A DNA stretch of 64,000 nt from Tetrahymena thermophila SB210 (Eukaryota > Ciliophora > Oligohymenophorea > Hymenostomatida > Tetrahymenidae), in contig NW_002476155.1 of the NCBI RefSeq assembly GCF_000189635.1, positions 1 through 64,000 of the forward strand. Direction: 5' to 3'. The position numbers were made by a program, and so were the translations under genes. The notes under the pieces were generated by a model that made no database searches, had not been told where the DNA came from, and saw only the letters and a program-made list of their open reading frames with translations. Positions within the stretch are counted from its first letter, which is position 1. Every line of letters begins with the position of its first letter. Positions 1 to 64,000 of this stretch are shown piece by piece.

Positions 1-81
1 CAACCCCAACCCCAACCCCAACCCCAACCCCAACCCCAACCCCAACCCCAACCCCAACCCCAACCCCAACCCCAACCCCAA
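1..81. repeat. Telomere, C4A2 repeats
   Basis: The window opens with CAA followed by 13 perfect CCCCAA units and then unique sequence from position 82. C4A2 on the 5' strand at the left end is the Tetrahymena-type telomere (G4T2 on the 3' strand). It shows that position 1 is at or very near a natural chromosome end, and it agrees with the ciliate code used by every gene in the window. The run has no variant units, unlike the mixed C4A2/C3A3 repeats of Paramecium. Confidence 0.97.
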
Positions 82-49031: not shown

Positions 49032-52000
49032 ATGGGTCAAGTAAATTGCTTATAAAATAATGATAAGAATAAGAATTAAAAACAAAATCAATAACTGTCG
49101 CCTTAGGATTTTCAAGAAGAAAGTGATTTAAAAAATGCAAAATTAGTTTTTGAAATATATAAAAAATTATGCCTGGATCTATTGAAGCCATTAGAAAAGT
49201 TATTATATAAGTTATAGTACTACTTGTTTAATAATGAAATGTTTTAGAACAATCAATCAAATATTTAGATATAGAATAATAATCCAATAGATTAGTCTCT
49301 AATCTTTAACCTCAAAAAGTAAGAAGAAGAATGGTATTCAGAGGTATTGGCTCATAAAGTAATTAAGGAAAGCTAATCGAAGCAAAATATGTTAGATAAC
49401 TAGAATATATCAAATGAATAATTTTTTAAGTTGGCAATTGCAGATATGATCAGTTAGATTATTTAGATAATAAATATAGAAGGTCAATCAGATTACTAAC
49501 GCAGATAAAAGCTAAATCAAATAACAAAAGTAGAAGATTAGTCAGATATCATATCTAGATAAAAGATTAATCAGATTAAAAATGTAGAAGATTAGTTAGA
49601 TAATGAATGCAAATAAAAATAATTAAATATTTGGTAGATTCGTAGTTTAGTAAAAGATATGGAAGATGTTTTGCAGTAATTTTTGTAGATTCAACATAAA
49701 CCAAAAAGTGATCATGTCTACAGAAACTGTAATGAAGATGAGGATGAAACAAGTTAAAATTATAGTTAAAATATGCTAAATCACTAAGAAAGTTTAGATG
49801 AAACGTGTGATGAAAGTTAAGAAACAAAATATAAATAAAGATAAATTGATAAAAAATTTTTGTCAAAATATTTAAGTCATGAAGATTAATAAGAATGGTT
49901 TATTATTACCCAAAAAATAGAAAATATTCTGCCAAACAAGAAGAATGTAGACCTAAAATTAAAATAAGTAAATTCTTAGGTAAAAAAGGAATCATTTATT
50001 TTGAAATCAGAGGCTTAGCAAAGTATGTTTTCTAATGCAAGTAGGAAGCTTATGATTATAAATGCTATTACAAAATAAGAAAAAAAAGTAGAAATAGAGA
50101 TATAAAATTTCCCCTATTCTCATAATGAAATTATTAATGTGCATCAAAATAGGAAACAAATTTTATTTTATAACAAAGATAAAAAGACAGAAAAAGATAA
50201 TTTGCTTTTTTATATAAATTACAAAAAAATCAAAGGTGATACTAATCTTCGAGAAAAAATCAGACAGTTTAAGTTACATTTAAAGTTGCTGCATCCACAT
50301 GAGTTAAACAGCTAGAATAATTTAAATCATTAAAATTCAGCTGATCAAAGCTTATAACCAACTTTTGTTTTTAATCTTTATGAACCATTGTACGTTATTA
50401 AGATAAAAAACCATTAACATGTAAGTATAAATTATTTTTAATTTAAAAAAAATTATTTCATTTGGAAGTTTGTTTTTAAATATTTCTGAAATTTATATTT
50501 TTTTAATTTAAAAAAAATTATTTATTTATGACAGGAAAAAAATGATAAGCAAGAGTATTTTTTGGCTTATAAATCAGATGTTTCCTACTTTACAATGTAG
50601 TAATTTATTGGAGAAAGCTCAAAGTTGAAATTGTCTGAATTAGAATTTTTAATTGTAATAAAAGATATGATAAAAATTTTAAAGCAGTTAGAAAAGAATA
50701 AAATAGGACATAGGAATATTTCCACAGAGACCCTGTTATATTATTTTAAAAATGAATAAAAATAATGGGTGCTTAAGGATTTGTTTAAATCACAAATTAT
50801 TGAAGACATTTATAAAAAATAAGAAATAACAACAATTTATGGAAAGATTGAATACGTTAGTCCAGAAATATCTAAAGAAATTTAGGCAAATACTAGTTAT
50901 TTTTCAAAATTTTCTCTCAAAGCATAAGATGTTTATGCTATGGGTATTGTTCTTGCAAAATTAAAACTCTGCCTTAATTAGCCTATTTCTGGTGAACAAA
51001 TAGATTAGTTTTTGATAAACGACAAAGTTCTAAGAAATGTAATTCTAAATATATTCTTATTACTTTAATCAATTAAATAAATTAATATATTTCTTATAAA
51101 AATATTATTAAATTACTATTAATTAGTCATACAAAATTGTTTGGAGAAATATCAATTTATAGTTTTTAAATTTCAATAATAAATGATACTATTCAATTAA
51201 TTATTCAAAAAATTATATTATATTATATTATAGAAGGATCTCAAGGTTTCGGATTACATAATAGGCCTTATGCTCTCCCCAAAAGAGAAAGATAGAATGG
51301 ATTTTAATTATGATGATATTATTACTTTGATAGAAGAAGAATTTTTTTCTCTTTATAAAGTTTATAAAATAGAAACTGAGCAAAATCCTTAAAAAGCAGA
51401 AAACAAAAACATTCTTTAAAATCATGATAAAATCATAAACTTTTTATAGAATGAAGTGACTGATAATTAATTAAAGTAATACAATGACTTTTGGGAGGTT
51501 TAGAACCTACCAAACTATGAAGAAATAGAAAGCTAGTAAAAATAAGCCAACGATATGGAAAGCTCTCAAATTACAGATATTTATTAAAAGTATTAATATG
51601 ATAAAAGTTTCCAATCAAATAAAGAAAACGAAGCGTAAGAAAAAGAGAGAATTGAAAGAGAGAGAAAAGAAAAAATCGAAAATGAAAAGAAAGAGTAAAA
51701 AATTGAATAAAAAAGGGAAAATAGATTAAAGAAATTATTAGAATTTTTAAAATTTATCAAGAATTTTAAAAATAGAGACTAGTATTAAAAGCTAGCTGAA
51801 GAAATTCTGTTATTTATTTAAAATAAAATGAAACCCAGCTAATAAAACTTACATGAAGAATTTGATATAATTTAGTAACTTATTCAGTTACATGATGAAA
51901 GTTTGGAATAAATTGAGAATAATTCTATAATTGAAGATTAGCAAAAAATAGGAGAGGCTATGTTAAAGAAATAAAAACCAAAGCTCAAGATAACTTAGTT

Positions 52001-57934: not shown

Positions 57935-60900
57935 TCAAAAATATATTTTTAAGGAAACTAATCTTTTTGATTTAAGACAATTACTGCTTACTTTAAATTC
58001 TTCTGATTCATTGATTTCGTTAAAACTTTTAATGTAAATTATTGTAAATTATTAATAAAAATTAACTTGACATATTGTTTAAATTCAAAATAATATTTTA
58101 AATCAATAAATAAAAAAACATTAGCAGAATAATAAATAAATAAAAAGCTAATATATAAATTTAAAGAGTCATTTTGTTTTTAATCATTTACATATTCGCA
58201 AACCAAAATAAATAAACTATTTTTACCTAAGAGTAAGGGTCAACTTAGAGAGTTTAGTGCATTTTGCTAAAGCAGAACCTAAGTCTTATGAACCTTTATC
58301 ACCAATTTAATTTTCACTTTTTAAATATTGAAGAAAAAATATAAAATAATTTGTTAGTTAAAAGGAAAAAAGAAGAAAAAATATCAGAAAATTATAAATG
58401 AATTAATTATTATTGAAAGTAAAAAATGAAAATTAATAAATGAGTTAATTTAACAAAAAAATAAAAAAAACAGAAATAGAATAAAAATAAAAATAAATCA
58501 AATAAAAAGCTAATAAATAAATAAATTAAATGAGTCGTTTTTTTATTAATTAATTTTCATATTCACAAACCAATATAAAAAACTGTTTTTACCTAAGATT
58601 AAGTGTCAAATTATAGAGTTTAGTGCACTTTGATAAAGCAGGGCCTAAATCTGATGCTGCTTTATCACCAATTTAATTGCAGCTTTTTAAATATTAAAGA
58701 AAAAAATATTTTATTAACTAGTAAATAGGAAAAAGTGAAGATAAAATATGAAATGTATGAATTAATGATAAAATCAAAATATGAAAATTAAAAATTAAAG
58801 AGTTAAACAAATACAAAAAGAAAAGCATAAGCAAAATAAAAAATAAAAATAAATCTAATAAAAAGCTAATAAATAAATTAAAAGAGTTTTTAAATATGAC
58901 AATCAAATACGAATACACTGTTTTTACCTAAGATTAAGTGTTAAATTTGATAAATTAGAGCAGTTTGATAAAGCAGAACCTAAGTCTGATATACATTTTT
59001 CACCAATTTAATTTCTACTTTTTGAATATTGAAGAAAAAAAATATAATTTACAAGTGAGTAAAAAGAAAAAATGATGAAAAAATATGAATGAAATGATGA
59101 GAAAATATGATTGAAATGAATTCATTAATAATGAAAGCAAAAGATGAAAATGAAAAATTTGAATGAGTTAAATTAACAAAGAAAGAAAGCAAAACATAAG
59201 TAAAATAAAAAGAAAACAAATCATATAAAAAGCTGATAAATAATAATAAGATTTTTTAATTTTTATATCACAATCTAACAAATAAACTATTTTTACCTAA
59301 GATCGAGTGTAAAATTTGAGAGATTAGTGCACTTTGCTAAAGCAAAACCTAAGCCTGATAGATCAATTACATCGATGAAATTTCCACTTTTAAAATATTG
59401 AAGAAAAAAATGAATAAAAAATATGAAAAAATAAGAATTAATAATCAAATTATAACTTAAAAATTAAAAAATGATTTAAATTAGCATCGAAAAAAAAAAA
59501 CAGAAGCAGAGTAAAAAAGAAAAATAAATCAATAAATAAAAAGCAAATAAAAGATTAAGAGTTAGCTATATTATTTTAAATTCATTTTTATACTAAAAAA
59601 TATCATAATCCTTAAAAAAAAAAACTATTTTTACCAAAGATCAAGTGTCAAATTTAAGATATTACAGCAATTTGATAAAGCAAAACCTAAGCCTGATACA
59701 TTAATTGCACCAATTTTATTTCCACTTTTTTAATTTCGAAGAAAAAATATTAATTAATTTGTTAGTTAGTTAGAAGGAAAAAATGAAAACCAAATAAAAT
59801 AATAAGAAATTAATTCATAATGAAAGCAAAGATTGAAGATGAAATAATGAGCTAAATTAAGCAAAGAAAGAAATAAAAAATACACAATTAGAATAATAAA
59901 AGAAAAATAAATCAAAAAAAAGCAAATATTTGAATTAAAACAGTTGATTTGTTTTAAATTCATTTTTGTATTAAAAATATCATAACCCAAAATAAATAAA
60001 TTGATTTTACAGAAGATAAAGTGTCAAATTTTAGATATTAGAGCAGTTTAATAAAGCAGTACCTAAACTTGATATACCTTCACTACCAATTTCATTGTCA
60101 CTTTTTAAATATTGAAGAAAAATATATGAAGAGAACATATGAAAATAATTAAAATAAAAGTAAAAATAATTAAAAAATAAGTTAATTTTACAAAGAAATA
60201 AAATAAACACTATTTAAATACATAAAAAAAGAAGAAAAAACAAATAAAAAGCTATTAAAAAAATTAAAAGAGTAGTTCTGTTTTTGAATTCATTTTATAT
60301 TAAAAAATACTGCAATCCAAAACAAATAAATTTTTTACTTAAGATCAAGTTTCAAATTTGAGAGATTAGTGCACGTTGCTAAAGCAGAACCTAATCCAGA
60401 TGCACCAACTGCACCAATTTAATTTCCACTTTTCAATTATTGAAAAAAAAATATTTCATTAATTAGTTAGCTGGAATTAAAAAATGAAGAAAAAATATGT
60501 AATAATTAGAAATAAATCAATTACTAATGAAAGCAAAATTTGAAATATAAAAATGAGGTATTTTTGCAAAGAAAAAAAAAAATAAATAAATTAAAAGAAT
60601 TGGTTTGTGTTAAATTCATTTTTATATTAAAAAATATGATAATCTAAAACAAATAAAATATTTTACCAAAGATTAAGAGCTAAATTTTAGATATTAGTGC
60701 AGTTTGCTAAAGCAGAACCTAAGCCTGATGCACTTTAATCATCAATTTAATTTTAACTTTTTCAATATTGAATAAAATAATAATAATTATTAATTAATTA
60801 GTTAGTTAGAATTAAATAGGAAGAAAAAATATGAAAATATTAGAAATTAATTAATAACGAAAGTAAAAGATTTAAAAAAAAAATGAGCGAGTTTAATTAA

Positions 60901-63900
60901 AAAAGAAAAATAGAAAAACAGAAGCAGAGTTTAAAAGAAAAAAAAGAAATCAAATAAAAAGCTAACAAATAAAAAGAGTTATAATGTTAAATTCATTTTT
61001 TTAAAAAAAAATTATCATGATCCAAAACAAATAAACTGCTTTTACCTAAGATCAAGTATCAAATTTGAAAGATGAGTATAGTTTACTAACGCAGAACCAA
61101 AGCCTTATGTACCAATAGCACCAATCTTATTTCCACTTTTAAGACATTGAAGAAATATATACAATTAGTTAGTTAGTTAAAAGGAAAAAATATCACAATC
61201 CAAAACAAAAAACTTTTTTACCAAAGAATAAGTGTAAAATTAGAGAGATAAGTGCTGTTTGCTAAAGCAGAACCTAAGTTAGATATACCTTCATCCCCAA
61301 TTTAATTGTAACTTTTTAAATATTGAAGAAAAAATAAAAAATAAATTAGTTAGAGAGTAAGTAAGTGAGTGAGTGAGTAAGAAGGAAAAAATATGAAATA
61401 ATAAGATATAAGTTAACTGATAATGATGGCTAAAGTTGAAATTTAAAAAATTATTTAAATTAATAAACAAAGAATAAAAATAGAAGCAGAATAAATTAGA
61501 AAAATTAAAATAAATTAAATTAGTTATATTGTTTAAAATTTATTTTAACACTAAAAAATATCACAAAAAACCAAAAAACAAATAAACTGTTTTTACGTAA
61601 TATTCAGTGTCAAATTTGAGATATTAGGGCAGTTTGCTAAAGCATTACCTAAGTCTGATGCACCAATTGCACAAATTGAATTTCCACTTTTTAAATTCAT
61701 TAGTTAGTTAGAAGAAAAAATGAAGAAAAAATAAGTAATGATTAGAAATAAATTAGTTAATAATGAAAGCAAAAGTAGGAAAGGAAAAAATGAATTAGCT
61801 TAATTAACAAACAAATAAAACTAAACAGAAGCAGAATAAAAAAGAAAAATAATCAAATAACATAAGATTAAGTATCAAATTTGAGAGATTAGTGTATTTT
61901 ACAAGAGCTAAACCTAAGCCTGATACGCTTTTATCACCAATCGAATTGTAACTTTTTAAATATTGAAGAAAAAATAAATAAATTAATTAGTTAGTTAAGG
62001 AAAAAATGAATAAAATATGAAATAAGAAGAAATCAGTATTGTTTAAAATAAATTCATTTTAGTGTTAAAAATATCGCAATCCAAAGCAAATAAACTGTTT
62101 TTACCTTAGATCAAGTGTCAAATTCGAGAGATTAGTGCAGTTTGCTTAAGCAAAACCTAAACCTGGTGCACCTACATCATCAATATAATTGTAACTTTTT
62201 AAATATTTAAGAAAAAATATATCATAAATAAATAATTTAGAAGAAAAAAATGAAATAATAAGAAGAAAGCAATAAATAAATAATGAAAGTAACAGTTATA
62301 ATTTAATAATTTAAATTAAAAAAGAAAAAAAAAAAAACTGGAGTTGAATTAAAAAAAAAAATAATTCAAATAAAAAGAAAATAAATAAATTAAAAGAGCT
62401 TTTTTGTTTTAATTTAATTTTTATGTTAAAAAATATGACAATCCAAAATAAATACACTGTTTTTACCTAAGATCAAGTATTAAATATGAGATATTAGTGC
62501 AGTTTGCTAAAGCAGAACATAAACCTGATGCACCACTTGCTCCAATATAATTTCCACTATTTAAATATTGAAGAAAAATTATAATATTATTAATTAGTTT
62601 GTAGGAAAAGATGAAAAAAATATGAATTAATTAATTAACAACGATCAAAAGTTGAAAATGAAAAAGTGAATTAGTTCATTTAATAAAGAAAAAAAGCAAA
62701 CAGAAGCAGAATTAAAAAGAAAAGAAATCAAAAAAAAAGCTAATAAATAAATTAAAAAAGAGTTGTTTTGTTTTAAATTCATTTTTTATTAAAAAATATC
62801 ACAATCAAAAACAAATCAACTGTTTTTACCGAAGATTAAGCATTAAATATGAAAGATTTGTACAGTTTTTTAAAGCAGAACCTAAGCCTTATGCAGCAAT
62901 TGCATGAATTTAATTGTAGCTTTTTAATTATTAAAGAAAAAATATTTAATTAATTATCTATATAGAAGAAAAAAATGAATGAAAATTTAAGAAATGATTA
63001 TAAATAAATTAATTTATAATTAAATACAAAGTTAAATTAAAGAAAAAAATAAATAAAAACAAGCTGAATAAAAATGAAAAATGAATCAAATAAAAAGCTA
63101 ATAAATAAATATATTAAAAGAATCATATTGTTTTAAATTCATTTTTATATTAAAAATATTTTAATCCAAAAAAAATAAACTATTTTTACCTAAGATCAAG
63201 TGTCAGATTTGAGAGATTATTGCACTTTGCTAAAGCATAACCTAAGTCTGGTGCACTATCATCAATTTAATTTACACTTTTCAAATATAGTTAATTATAA
63301 GGAAAAAATATGAAATCAATAATAATAAAGTAAAAATTCAAAATTAAGAAATTAGTTATTTAACAAATTGATAAAAGAAAACAGAGGCAGAATAAAAAAG
63401 AAAAAATAAATTCAAATCAAATAAAAAACTAATAAATAAATTAAAAGAATTAGTTAGTTATATTATTTTAAATTCATTTTTATATTAAAAAATTTCACTA
63501 ACCAAAAAAAAAACCCTATTTTTACCAAAGATCAAGTCTCAATTTTGAGAGATTAGTGCACTTTGCTAAAGCAGAACATAAGCCTGATGCAAATTTATCT
63601 CCAATTAATTTGTAACTTTTTAAATATTGAAGAAAAAATATATTATTAATTAATTAGTTAGAAGGAAAAAATGAAGAAAAAATATCAAATAAAAAATTAT
63701 TAATTAATTAAAATTCAAAATAAAAATAAAAATTTAAAATGAAAAATAAGTTAAAAAAAATATTTGAGAAAATAAAAATGAACGAAAGAATAAAGATGAT
63801 AAATTATATAAGAAAAATAATTTTGCTAATAACTTTAAAATTAAATTTATAAAAAAATTAATAATAATATAAATATACTTCTGAAAAATATGGAGAATCT

Positions 63901-64000
63901 AGTGAGATTATAGCGAAGAGTTTAAAAACTTTTTTTATTAAAAAATATAAATTTAAAGAATATTCCTAAATAAATAAATAATTACTTCTTCTAGATCTTA
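57935..64000 (-). CDS. Leucine-rich-repeat protein built of uniform exons (5' end outside window)
   Basis: Terminal exon 58025-57935 (TGA 57935-57937) plus 17 upstream LRR exons. Low-coordinate starts are 58227, 58593, 58928, 59297, 59635, 60011, 60339, 60667, 61046, 61222, 61597, 61862, 62105, 62467, 62830, 63190 and 63526. Each is 90 bases (87 for 63190) and begins and ends in phase 2. Each encodes one 30-residue ribonuclease-inhibitor-like LRR, consensus S-G-N-Q-I-G-A-x-G-A-S-G-L-G-S-A-L-A-K-C then T-N-L-S-N-L-T-L-D-L. All 17 stay open under the ciliate code. The last exon closes with SSNCLKSKRLVSLKIYF. About 540 residues are visible. LRR solenoids bind proteins; in ciliates they are often joined to kinase domains, but the N-terminus is not in the window, so the partner domain is unknown. 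Exons upstream of 63615 were not found. Confidence 0.85.
58227..63615 (-). repeat. Tandem array of 17 exon-intron units
   Basis: The repeated unit is about 330-380 bases: a 90-base LRR exon plus an intron whose sequence also recurs. Recurrent intron blocks, read on the plus strand, are TATTGAAGAAAAAATAT after each exon, TTAATTAGTTAG with GAAGGAAAAAATGAAG, ATAATGAAAGCAAAA, ACAGAAGCAGAATAAAAAAG, AAATAAAAAGCTAATAAATAAA, and AAATTCATTTTTATATTAAA up to AAATAAACTGTTTTTAC at the donor. Three units are shortened by intron loss of sequence: starts 61046 to 61222 (176 bases apart), 61862 to 62105 (243) and 61597 to 61862 (265). Units are diverged by point changes but keep exon length. Confidence 0.9.
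63616..64000. other. Upstream part of the LRR gene or its intron
   Basis: Begins with the intron sequence typical of the array, then becomes unique AT-rich DNA from about 63700. A less AT-rich stretch at 63889-63930 could hold part of a preceding minus-strand exon with a GTATAT donor, but the frame cannot be fixed from this window. Confidence 0.4.

What the first reader, a model, noticed from the sequence alone, without database searches (positions are those of the whole stretch)
58227..63615. LRR gene grown by copying whole exon-intron units
Seventeen consecutive exons, 16 of exactly 90 bases and one of 87, all phase 2 to phase 2, each encode a single LRR, and the introns between them are repeats of each other. 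Each repeat's first residue is a codon split over the intron (AG, TG, AA, AC, AT, CT or CG before the junction, usually T after it). Copying an exon-intron unit can therefore never break the frame. This is a clear case of a protein repeat number set by genomic tandem duplication, and it could vary between strains or between micronucleus and macronucleus copies.
Basis: seen in the sequence. Interest (0 to 1): 0.75.

Follow-up and report, generated by a model that had tools for sequence, protein, structure and literature searches.

The report
Known Tetrahymena 90-base-exon LRR gene
This is one of the many leucine-rich-repeat genes of the ciliate Tetrahymena built from rows of 90-base exons, a striking gene design that was already described in detail in 2019.

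Summary
In detail: on the minus strand, 63615-58227, lie 17 consecutive AG|exon|GT units, 16 of 90 nt and one of 87, all phase 2-2, each one LRR and free of TGA in the ciliate code. With a proposed first and last coding exon the whole reads as a 587-residue LRR protein without internal stop. The window is the end of a macronuclear chromosome, almost certainly Tetrahymena thermophila. This architecture (tandem phase-2 90-bp exons, long repeated introns, repeat number changed by exon-unit shuffling) was published by Xiong et al. 2019 (PMC6564038) for thousands of Tetrahymena LRR genes; this gene fits their young "group III" on each feature I could test. Units are homologous exon plus intron, but they are not significantly more alike when adjacent, nor more alike within this gene than to the neighbouring array; three of four units searched have their best matches on other contigs. 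Recent stepwise copying inside this gene is not visible, apart perhaps from the last two units. Splicing is unproven for lack of RNA data. Already known; low interest.

The parts
63879..64000 (-). Putative first coding exon (runs on past the window end to contig base 64024; 146 nt, ATG, ends in phase 2)
   Evidence: In 22 aligned 5' ends ATG sits at this place in 18 and the donor GT in 21, but 11 carry an indel that is not a multiple of 3, so it is the weakest part of the model
63526..63615 (-). LRR exon 1 (90 nt)
63190..63276 (-). LRR exon 2 (87 nt, one codon shorter)
62830..62919 (-). LRR exon 3 (90 nt)
62467..62556 (-). LRR exon 4 (90 nt)
62105..62194 (-). LRR exon 5 (90 nt)
61862..61951 (-). 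LRR exon 6 (90 nt) with atypical donor GTTATTT
61597..61686 (-). LRR exon 7 (90 nt)
61222..61311 (-). LRR exon 8 (90 nt)
61046..61135 (-). LRR exon 9 (90 nt)
60667..60756 (-). LRR exon 10 (90 nt)
60339..60428 (-). LRR exon 11 (90 nt)
60011..60100 (-). LRR exon 12 (90 nt)
59635..59724 (-). LRR exon 13 (90 nt)
59297..59386 (-). LRR exon 14 (90 nt)
58928..59017 (-). LRR exon 15 (90 nt)
58593..58682 (-). LRR exon 16 (90 nt)
   Evidence: its best-scoring match in the genome outside itself is exon 17
58227..58316 (-). LRR exon 17 (90 nt)
57935..58025 (-). Last coding exon (91 nt, ends in TGA; C-terminal ...KSKRLVSLKIYF)
   Evidence: 39 similar 3' ends in the genome, a lower bound; of 22 aligned rows 18 keep the acceptor AG and 17 the residues KRLV

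Best explanation
It is a macronuclear copy of a Tetrahymena thermophila 90-bp-exon-array LRR gene of the young 'group III' class of Xiong et al. 2019. Transcribed from the minus strand and spliced at 18 phase-2 introns, it would encode a 587-residue protein with 17 LRRs of the LRR_6 kind between a short family-specific head and tail (exons shown in sequence; splicing inferred). Each unit is one LRR exon plus its intron; because every LRR exon begins and ends in phase 2 and is a multiple of 3, units can be gained, lost or exchanged without frameshift (follows from the phases). The units trace to a shared source sequence that spread through the genome. In this array they are now about 75% identical to each other whatever their order, so its repeat set is best read as an older, shuffled or long-diverged array rather than one being extended by local copying, except perhaps its last two units (inferred). 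Selection keeps the frame and the buried leucines; at the other positions change is not distinguishable from neutral. Most likely function (inferred, weakest step): an LRR scaffold that binds a protein partner.
For: Phase, length and open frame of 17 of 17 exons and full-length model. Leucine codons at exon nt 36, 48, 66, 75, 81, 87, the positions given in the paper's S15 legend: 95 of 96 residues there in the 16 exons of 90 nt are L, I, V, M or F. Median intron 259.5 nt against about 257 for group III. Exons hold 1 indel, in frame, in 1527 nt; introns hold 122 indels, 98 of them not multiples of 3, in 3862 nt. pN/pS against consensus is 0.41 at the six leucine codons (no simulation of up to 400 as low) and 1.46 elsewhere (neutral range 0.92-1.73). 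Pfam LRR_6, E 5.3e-21. In the same genome, besides the query itself: 40 matching places for one unit, 39 near-full-length and 8 shorter matches for the 5' region, 39 for the 3' end, all lower bounds because only the best 40 candidates are scored. 135 of 135 TERT residues identical to 6d6v_A (that this entry is T. thermophila is recalled). Window starts with 13.5 copies of the C4A2 telomere repeat.
Against: No RNA evidence for any junction of this gene here. Donor of LRR exon 6 is atypical. The first exon carries frame-breaking indels in 11 of 22 aligned rows, and its codon-position divergence is not clearly coding-like (0.187, 0.145, 0.186). Over all codons pN/pS among repeats is at the neutral level, so selection on most residues is not shown. 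Lack of adjacency could come from age alone, not from exchange. The CRS masking that formally defines group III could not be run.
Confidence: 0.93

Rival explanations
1. The gene grew to 17 repeats by recent stepwise tandem duplication of its own exon-intron units.
For: Whole units, exon and intron, are homologous. Units 16 and 17 are each other's nearest in the exon-plus-flanks comparison, and unit 17 ranks first after self for unit 16 genome-wide. Introns lean this way: 4 of 16 have the next intron as nearest (5-6, 9-10, 14-15, 15-16), 10 of 16 have their nearest in the same gene (8.3 expected), adjacent mean 75.6%, P 0.09. Some other arrays hold nearly identical neighbouring units, up to 98.9% (L071).
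Against: No relation of identity to separation (Mantel P 0.68 exons, 0.44 exon plus flanks, 0.33 introns); adjacent exons no more alike than others (P 0.64; with flanks 0.37); nearest neighbour in the same gene for 8 of 17 exons and 6 of 17 exons with flanks, 8.8 expected. Among 154 units of 11 stretches (12 labels), 1 of the 16 units of this gene has its nearest in this gene, about 1.6 expected; the highest adjacent identity in this array is 81.1%. The 86-nt intron 8 is the nearest of 6 introns, probably because it is so short, which inflates the intron count.
Confidence: 0.12
2. The array is a pseudogene: units decay neutrally and are not joined in a protein.
For: pN/pS over all codons 1.25, inside the neutral range 0.89-1.52. 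Exon and intron divergence are about equal. One atypical donor.
Against: 0 frameshifting indels in 1527 exon nt where the intron rate predicts about 39. No TGA in 17 exons (about 3% under neutral simulation). The six leucine codons are conserved beyond the simulations. All 17 acceptors are AG, 16 of them AAAAG and one AATAG, and 16 of 17 donors are family-like.
Confidence: 0.05
3. Not exclusive with the best explanation: the array is a mosaic put together by unequal exchange or conversion with other LRR genes in the germline, possibly helped by the REP retrotransposon, as the paper proposes for the family.
For: Three of four searched units have their best matches on other contigs (one search is the exception). 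Of 16 units, the nearest lies in other stretches for 14, in the neighbouring array for 1 and in this gene for 1. The paper reports such scrambling for an 83-gene cluster.
Against: With very many units in the genome the closest match lies elsewhere by sample size alone. The best outside match in these searches is only 88-89%, so no recent exchange is shown.
Confidence: 0.45

Closest known systems
[quoted passage not shown] 2019, PMC6564038)
   Same: Runs of exactly 90-bp phase-2 exons, one LRR each; introns near 257 nt; leucine codons at the same six exon positions; repeats detectable at the DNA level; same species by TERT
   Different: One exon is 87 nt and one donor is atypical; units are about 75% identical, without the near-identical neighbours seen in some other arrays
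Tetrahymena group II LRR genes (same paper)
   Same: 90-bp phase-2 exon arrays
   Different: Group II has introns near 56 nt and no repeats visible at the DNA level; here the introns between LRR exons are 86-289 nt and clearly repeated
Other LRR proteins of solved structure, e.g. radial spoke protein 15, dynein regulatory complex subunit 5, RanGAP (matches)
   Same: LRR sequence similarity
   Different: Partial matches only; [quoted passage not shown]

Membership tests
Tetrahymena group III 90-bp exon LRR genes | At least one 90-bp exon, usually three or more in a row | tested here: met
   16 of 17 LRR exons are 90 nt; the last 15 stand in a row
Tetrahymena group III 90-bp exon LRR genes | Phase-2 introns around the 90-bp exons | tested here: met
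   18 of 18 introns of the model are phase 2
Tetrahymena group III 90-bp exon LRR genes | Leucine codons centred on exon nt 36, 48, 66, 75, 81, 87 | tested here: met
   95 of 96 are L, I, V, M or F in the 16 exons of 90 nt, most of them L
Tetrahymena group III 90-bp exon LRR genes | Encodes an LRR protein | tested here: met
   Pfam LRR_6 5.3e-21, LRR_1 2e-08, LRR_5 1.2e-07
Tetrahymena group III 90-bp exon LRR genes | Long introns, main peak about 257 bp | tested here: met
   Median 259.5 nt over the 16 introns between LRR exons; range 86-289
Tetrahymena group III 90-bp exon LRR genes | Intragenic repeat units visible at nucleotide level | tested here: met
   TRF arrays of period 328-369; profile of the units: 17 hits in the array, none elsewhere in the window at E 1e-3
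Tetrahymena group III 90-bp exon LRR genes | Masked by one of the eight consensus repeats CRS1-CRS8 | not testable with these tools
Tetrahymena group III 90-bp exon LRR genes | Higher G+C and altered leucine codon use | not tested
   Not computed
Tetrahymena group III 90-bp exon LRR genes | Germline location near centromeres or telomeres, next to IES/REP | not testable with these tools
   No micronuclear assembly at hand
Tetrahymena group III 90-bp exon LRR genes | Exons joined in RNA | not testable with these tools
   No RNA reads; the paper shows RNA-Seq support for another gene, TTHERM_01349950 (S8 legend)

The most novel reading that the evidence does not exclude
Whole-unit exchange among a very large pool of interchangeable 90-nt LRR cassettes, with only the frame and the buried leucines held and the other positions free to change (pN/pS there not below the neutral level), makes these genes a repertoire of recognition surfaces that is reshuffled in the germline, and this array is an old, fully scrambled member of it.
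Probability: 0.2. Interest if true: 0.45.

Novelty: already known. Interest (0 to 1): 0.15.

Why it matters
As a phenomenon it is a textbook-grade example of exon shuffling with symmetric phase-2 exons, and it is already in print for ten Tetrahymena species. This gene adds only a well-delimited example and a caution: a repeat array can look like a ladder of tandem copies and still carry no clear trace of local, stepwise growth.

Tried and rejected
A scan with a generic LRR motif did not list the exons; a plain AG-n-GT scan did. Local growth was tested by Mantel and adjacency shuffles and not found for this array. The significant adjacency value for L069 (P below 0.0005) is not used, because two arrays on opposite strands were pooled under one label there; L070 has the same flaw. 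Of the other eight labels tested none was below 0.05 (lowest L073, 0.06). The pooled count (nearest in the same label for 68 of 154 units, 16.6 expected) shows that other arrays are internally related; it suffers from the same pooling and from stretches chosen by similarity to this gene's ends. In one search a length of 90 was preferred when several lengths fitted, and 4 of 162 hits gave no open exon. Diversifying selection was considered: pN/pS 1.46 outside the leucines looked high, but neutral simulation gives 0.92-1.73, so it is not claimed. Rfam (gathering thresholds) and ARAGORN gave 0 matches in the window. No structure prediction was run, because a spliced protein is not read letter for letter from one frame of the DNA and so falls outside the stated limits. 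Transmembrane segments or signal peptides were not tested.

Papers: PMC6564038: abstract and outline, found passages, sections 10, 25 and 27 and part 1 of 2 of section 15. PMC10868616: found passages only (the term LRR occurs 0 times there). Paper searches. Of the three papers listed only PMC6564038 holds '90-bp exon'.
Full report
What was checked. The window is bases 1-64000 of contig C334 (530,000 bases) of a 101.0-Mb, 445-contig assembly. It begins with 13.5 perfect copies of the telomere repeat CAACCC, i.e. C4A2, and is about 23% G+C (mean of the rows). A telomerase exon found in the same assembly is identical over 135 of 135 residues to PDB chain 6d6v_A, which I recall to be Tetrahymena thermophila TERT; the call itself prints no organism. 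The ciliate code (TAA/TAG = Q, TGA = stop) was therefore used.

On the minus strand 17 AG|exon|GT units run from 63615 to 58227, 16 of 90 nt and one of 87, all open, all phase 2 on both sides. The split codons are as described; the base after the junction is T in 15 and C in 2 of 17. Apart from the array's own strand and span the window has 213 AG-90-GT stretches, only 1 of which is open and has L, I, V, M or F at all six leucine positions; the array holds 15 such. A profile built from the units of this and the neighbouring array finds 17 units in this array and none elsewhere in the window at E 1e-3.

Gene model. Extending both ways gives a first coding exon 64024-63879 (24 nt past the window end), the 17 LRR exons and a last exon 58025-57935 ending in TGA; the coding sequence is 1764 nt, 587 residues plus stop, with no internal stop. 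Pfam finds LRR_6 (5.3e-21), LRR_1 and LRR_5; PDB matches include radial spoke protein 15, dynein regulatory complex subunit 5 and RanGAP. The 3' end and the 5' region recur widely: besides the query, 39 places for the 3' end, 39 near-full-length and 8 shorter matches for the 5' region; each search scored only the best 40 candidates, so these are lower bounds. In an alignment of 22 5' ends (this gene, its neighbour and 20 of the other 38 near-full-length hits) ATG is at this place in 18 and the donor GT in 21, but 11 rows carry an indel not divisible by three, and codon-position divergence (0.187, 0.145, 0.186) is not clearly coding-like, so the first exon is the weakest part. In 22 aligned 3' ends (this gene, its neighbour and 20 of the other 38 hits) 18 keep the acceptor AG and 17 the residues KRLV.

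Weak junction. Of the 32 LRR-exon donors of this gene and its neighbour, 30 start GTAA and one GTGA; the donor of LRR exon 6 (after 61862) is GTTATTT, and the following intron is 175 nt. The open reading frame and the length of 90 fit, but only RNA can settle this junction.

Is it coding? Exons hold one indel (in frame) in 1527 nt, introns 122 in 3862 nt, 98 of them frameshifting; at the intron rate about 39 frameshifts would be expected in the exons. Under a neutral simulation with the intron substitution pattern, 17 exons free of TGA have a probability of about 0.03, and 95 of 96 hydrophobic residues at the leucine positions about 0.0007. pN/pS against the consensus is 0.41 at the six leucine codons (no simulation of up to 400 as low), and 1.46 at the other codons, inside the neutral range 0.92-1.73; over all codons it is 1.25 (range 0.89-1.52). 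Pairwise dN/dS among repeats is 1.07 (120 pairs). So frame and scaffold are kept; for most other positions neither constraint nor diversification is shown.

Did the gene grow by copying its own units? Mean identity is 74.8% among this gene's exons, 74.5% to the exons of the neighbouring array, and 74.8% among its introns (aligned columns). Identity does not fall significantly with separation (Mantel P 0.68, 0.44 and 0.33 for exons, exon plus flanks, introns); adjacent units are not significantly more alike (P 0.64, 0.37, 0.09); the nearest neighbour lies in the same gene for 8 of 17 exons and 6 of 17 exon-plus-flank units (8.8 expected) and for 10 of 16 introns (8.3 expected). The introns thus lean weakly towards local copying: 4 of 16 have the next intron as nearest; but the 86-nt intron 8 is the nearest of 6, probably because it is short. 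Of four units searched genome-wide, three have their best matches on other contigs and one, LRR exon 16, has exon 17 first. Ten further stretches plus the one with the two arrays gave 162 unit hits, 158 with an open AG-n-GT exon (90 preferred in the choice of length), 154 of 90 nt; of the 16 units of this gene, 1 has its nearest within the gene (about 1.6 expected), 1 in the neighbouring array and 14 elsewhere, while other arrays hold neighbours up to 98.9% identical (L071). A larger sample outside the gene raises the best outside match by itself, so this shows absence of a local signal, not proof of exchange. Unit number varies among relatives: four stretches that hold a 5' and a 3' end have 13, 12, 7 and 4 unit hits (L065-L068) against 17 here; I take each to be one gene.

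Comparison with the literature. Xiong et al. 2019 (PMC6564038; abstract, passages, sections 10, 25, 27 and part 1 of section 15 read) describe tandem arrays of exactly 90-bp exons with more than 98% phase-2 introns in LRR genes of ten Tetrahymena species, 1 to 51 such exons per gene in T. thermophila, an intron peak near 257 bp in the young group III, leucines at nt 36, 48, 66, 75, 81 and 87, the split junction codon, RNA-Seq support for an example gene, and unequal crossing over with possible REP retrotransposition as mechanism. The present gene meets each feature that I tested; the CRS masking, germline place and RNA could not be tested. The paper names recombination both within a gene and between genes; here a within-gene signal is not significant, with the last two units as the likeliest local pair. 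A 22-strain macronuclear study of T. thermophila exists (PMC10868616); the passages I saw do not mention LRR genes.

Verdict. A real, nicely readable member of a published family; observation confirmed, interpretation partly supported, no novelty. The function is not established; an LRR binding scaffold is the most likely, and the paper's suggestion of a role in sensing bacteria is a hypothesis.

Noticed in passing
contig C334:64735-69923, beyond the window (L009 1736-6924), minus strand: A second LRR array directly upstream on the same strand: 15 exons (14 of 90 nt, one of 93) and a last exon with the same kind of tail (64825-64735); its 3' end is 83% identical in DNA to this gene's over 188 bases.
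   Followed up: partly
contig C334:69950-70340 (L009): The 5' region of that second gene has one base less in a homopolymer than this gene's putative first exon, and 10 other rows of the alignment also carry indels not divisible by three; either the first-exon model is wrong for them or homopolymer length drifts.
   Followed up: partly
window 61862-61687: The intron after LRR exon 6 lacks the usual GTAAAA start and is short (175 nt), yet a GT falls exactly at the 90-nt boundary; 33 of 40 other matches of this unit end within 3 bases of the exon end.
   Followed up: partly
window 61221-61136: One intron is only 86 nt where the median is 259.5, i.e. much of the repeated intron is missing.
   Followed up: no
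window 49501-49629: Tandem repeat of period 54, 2.4 copies, 74% matches.
   Followed up: no
window 1-81: Perfect C4A2 telomere repeat, 13.5 copies: the window starts at a macronuclear chromosome end.
   Followed up: no
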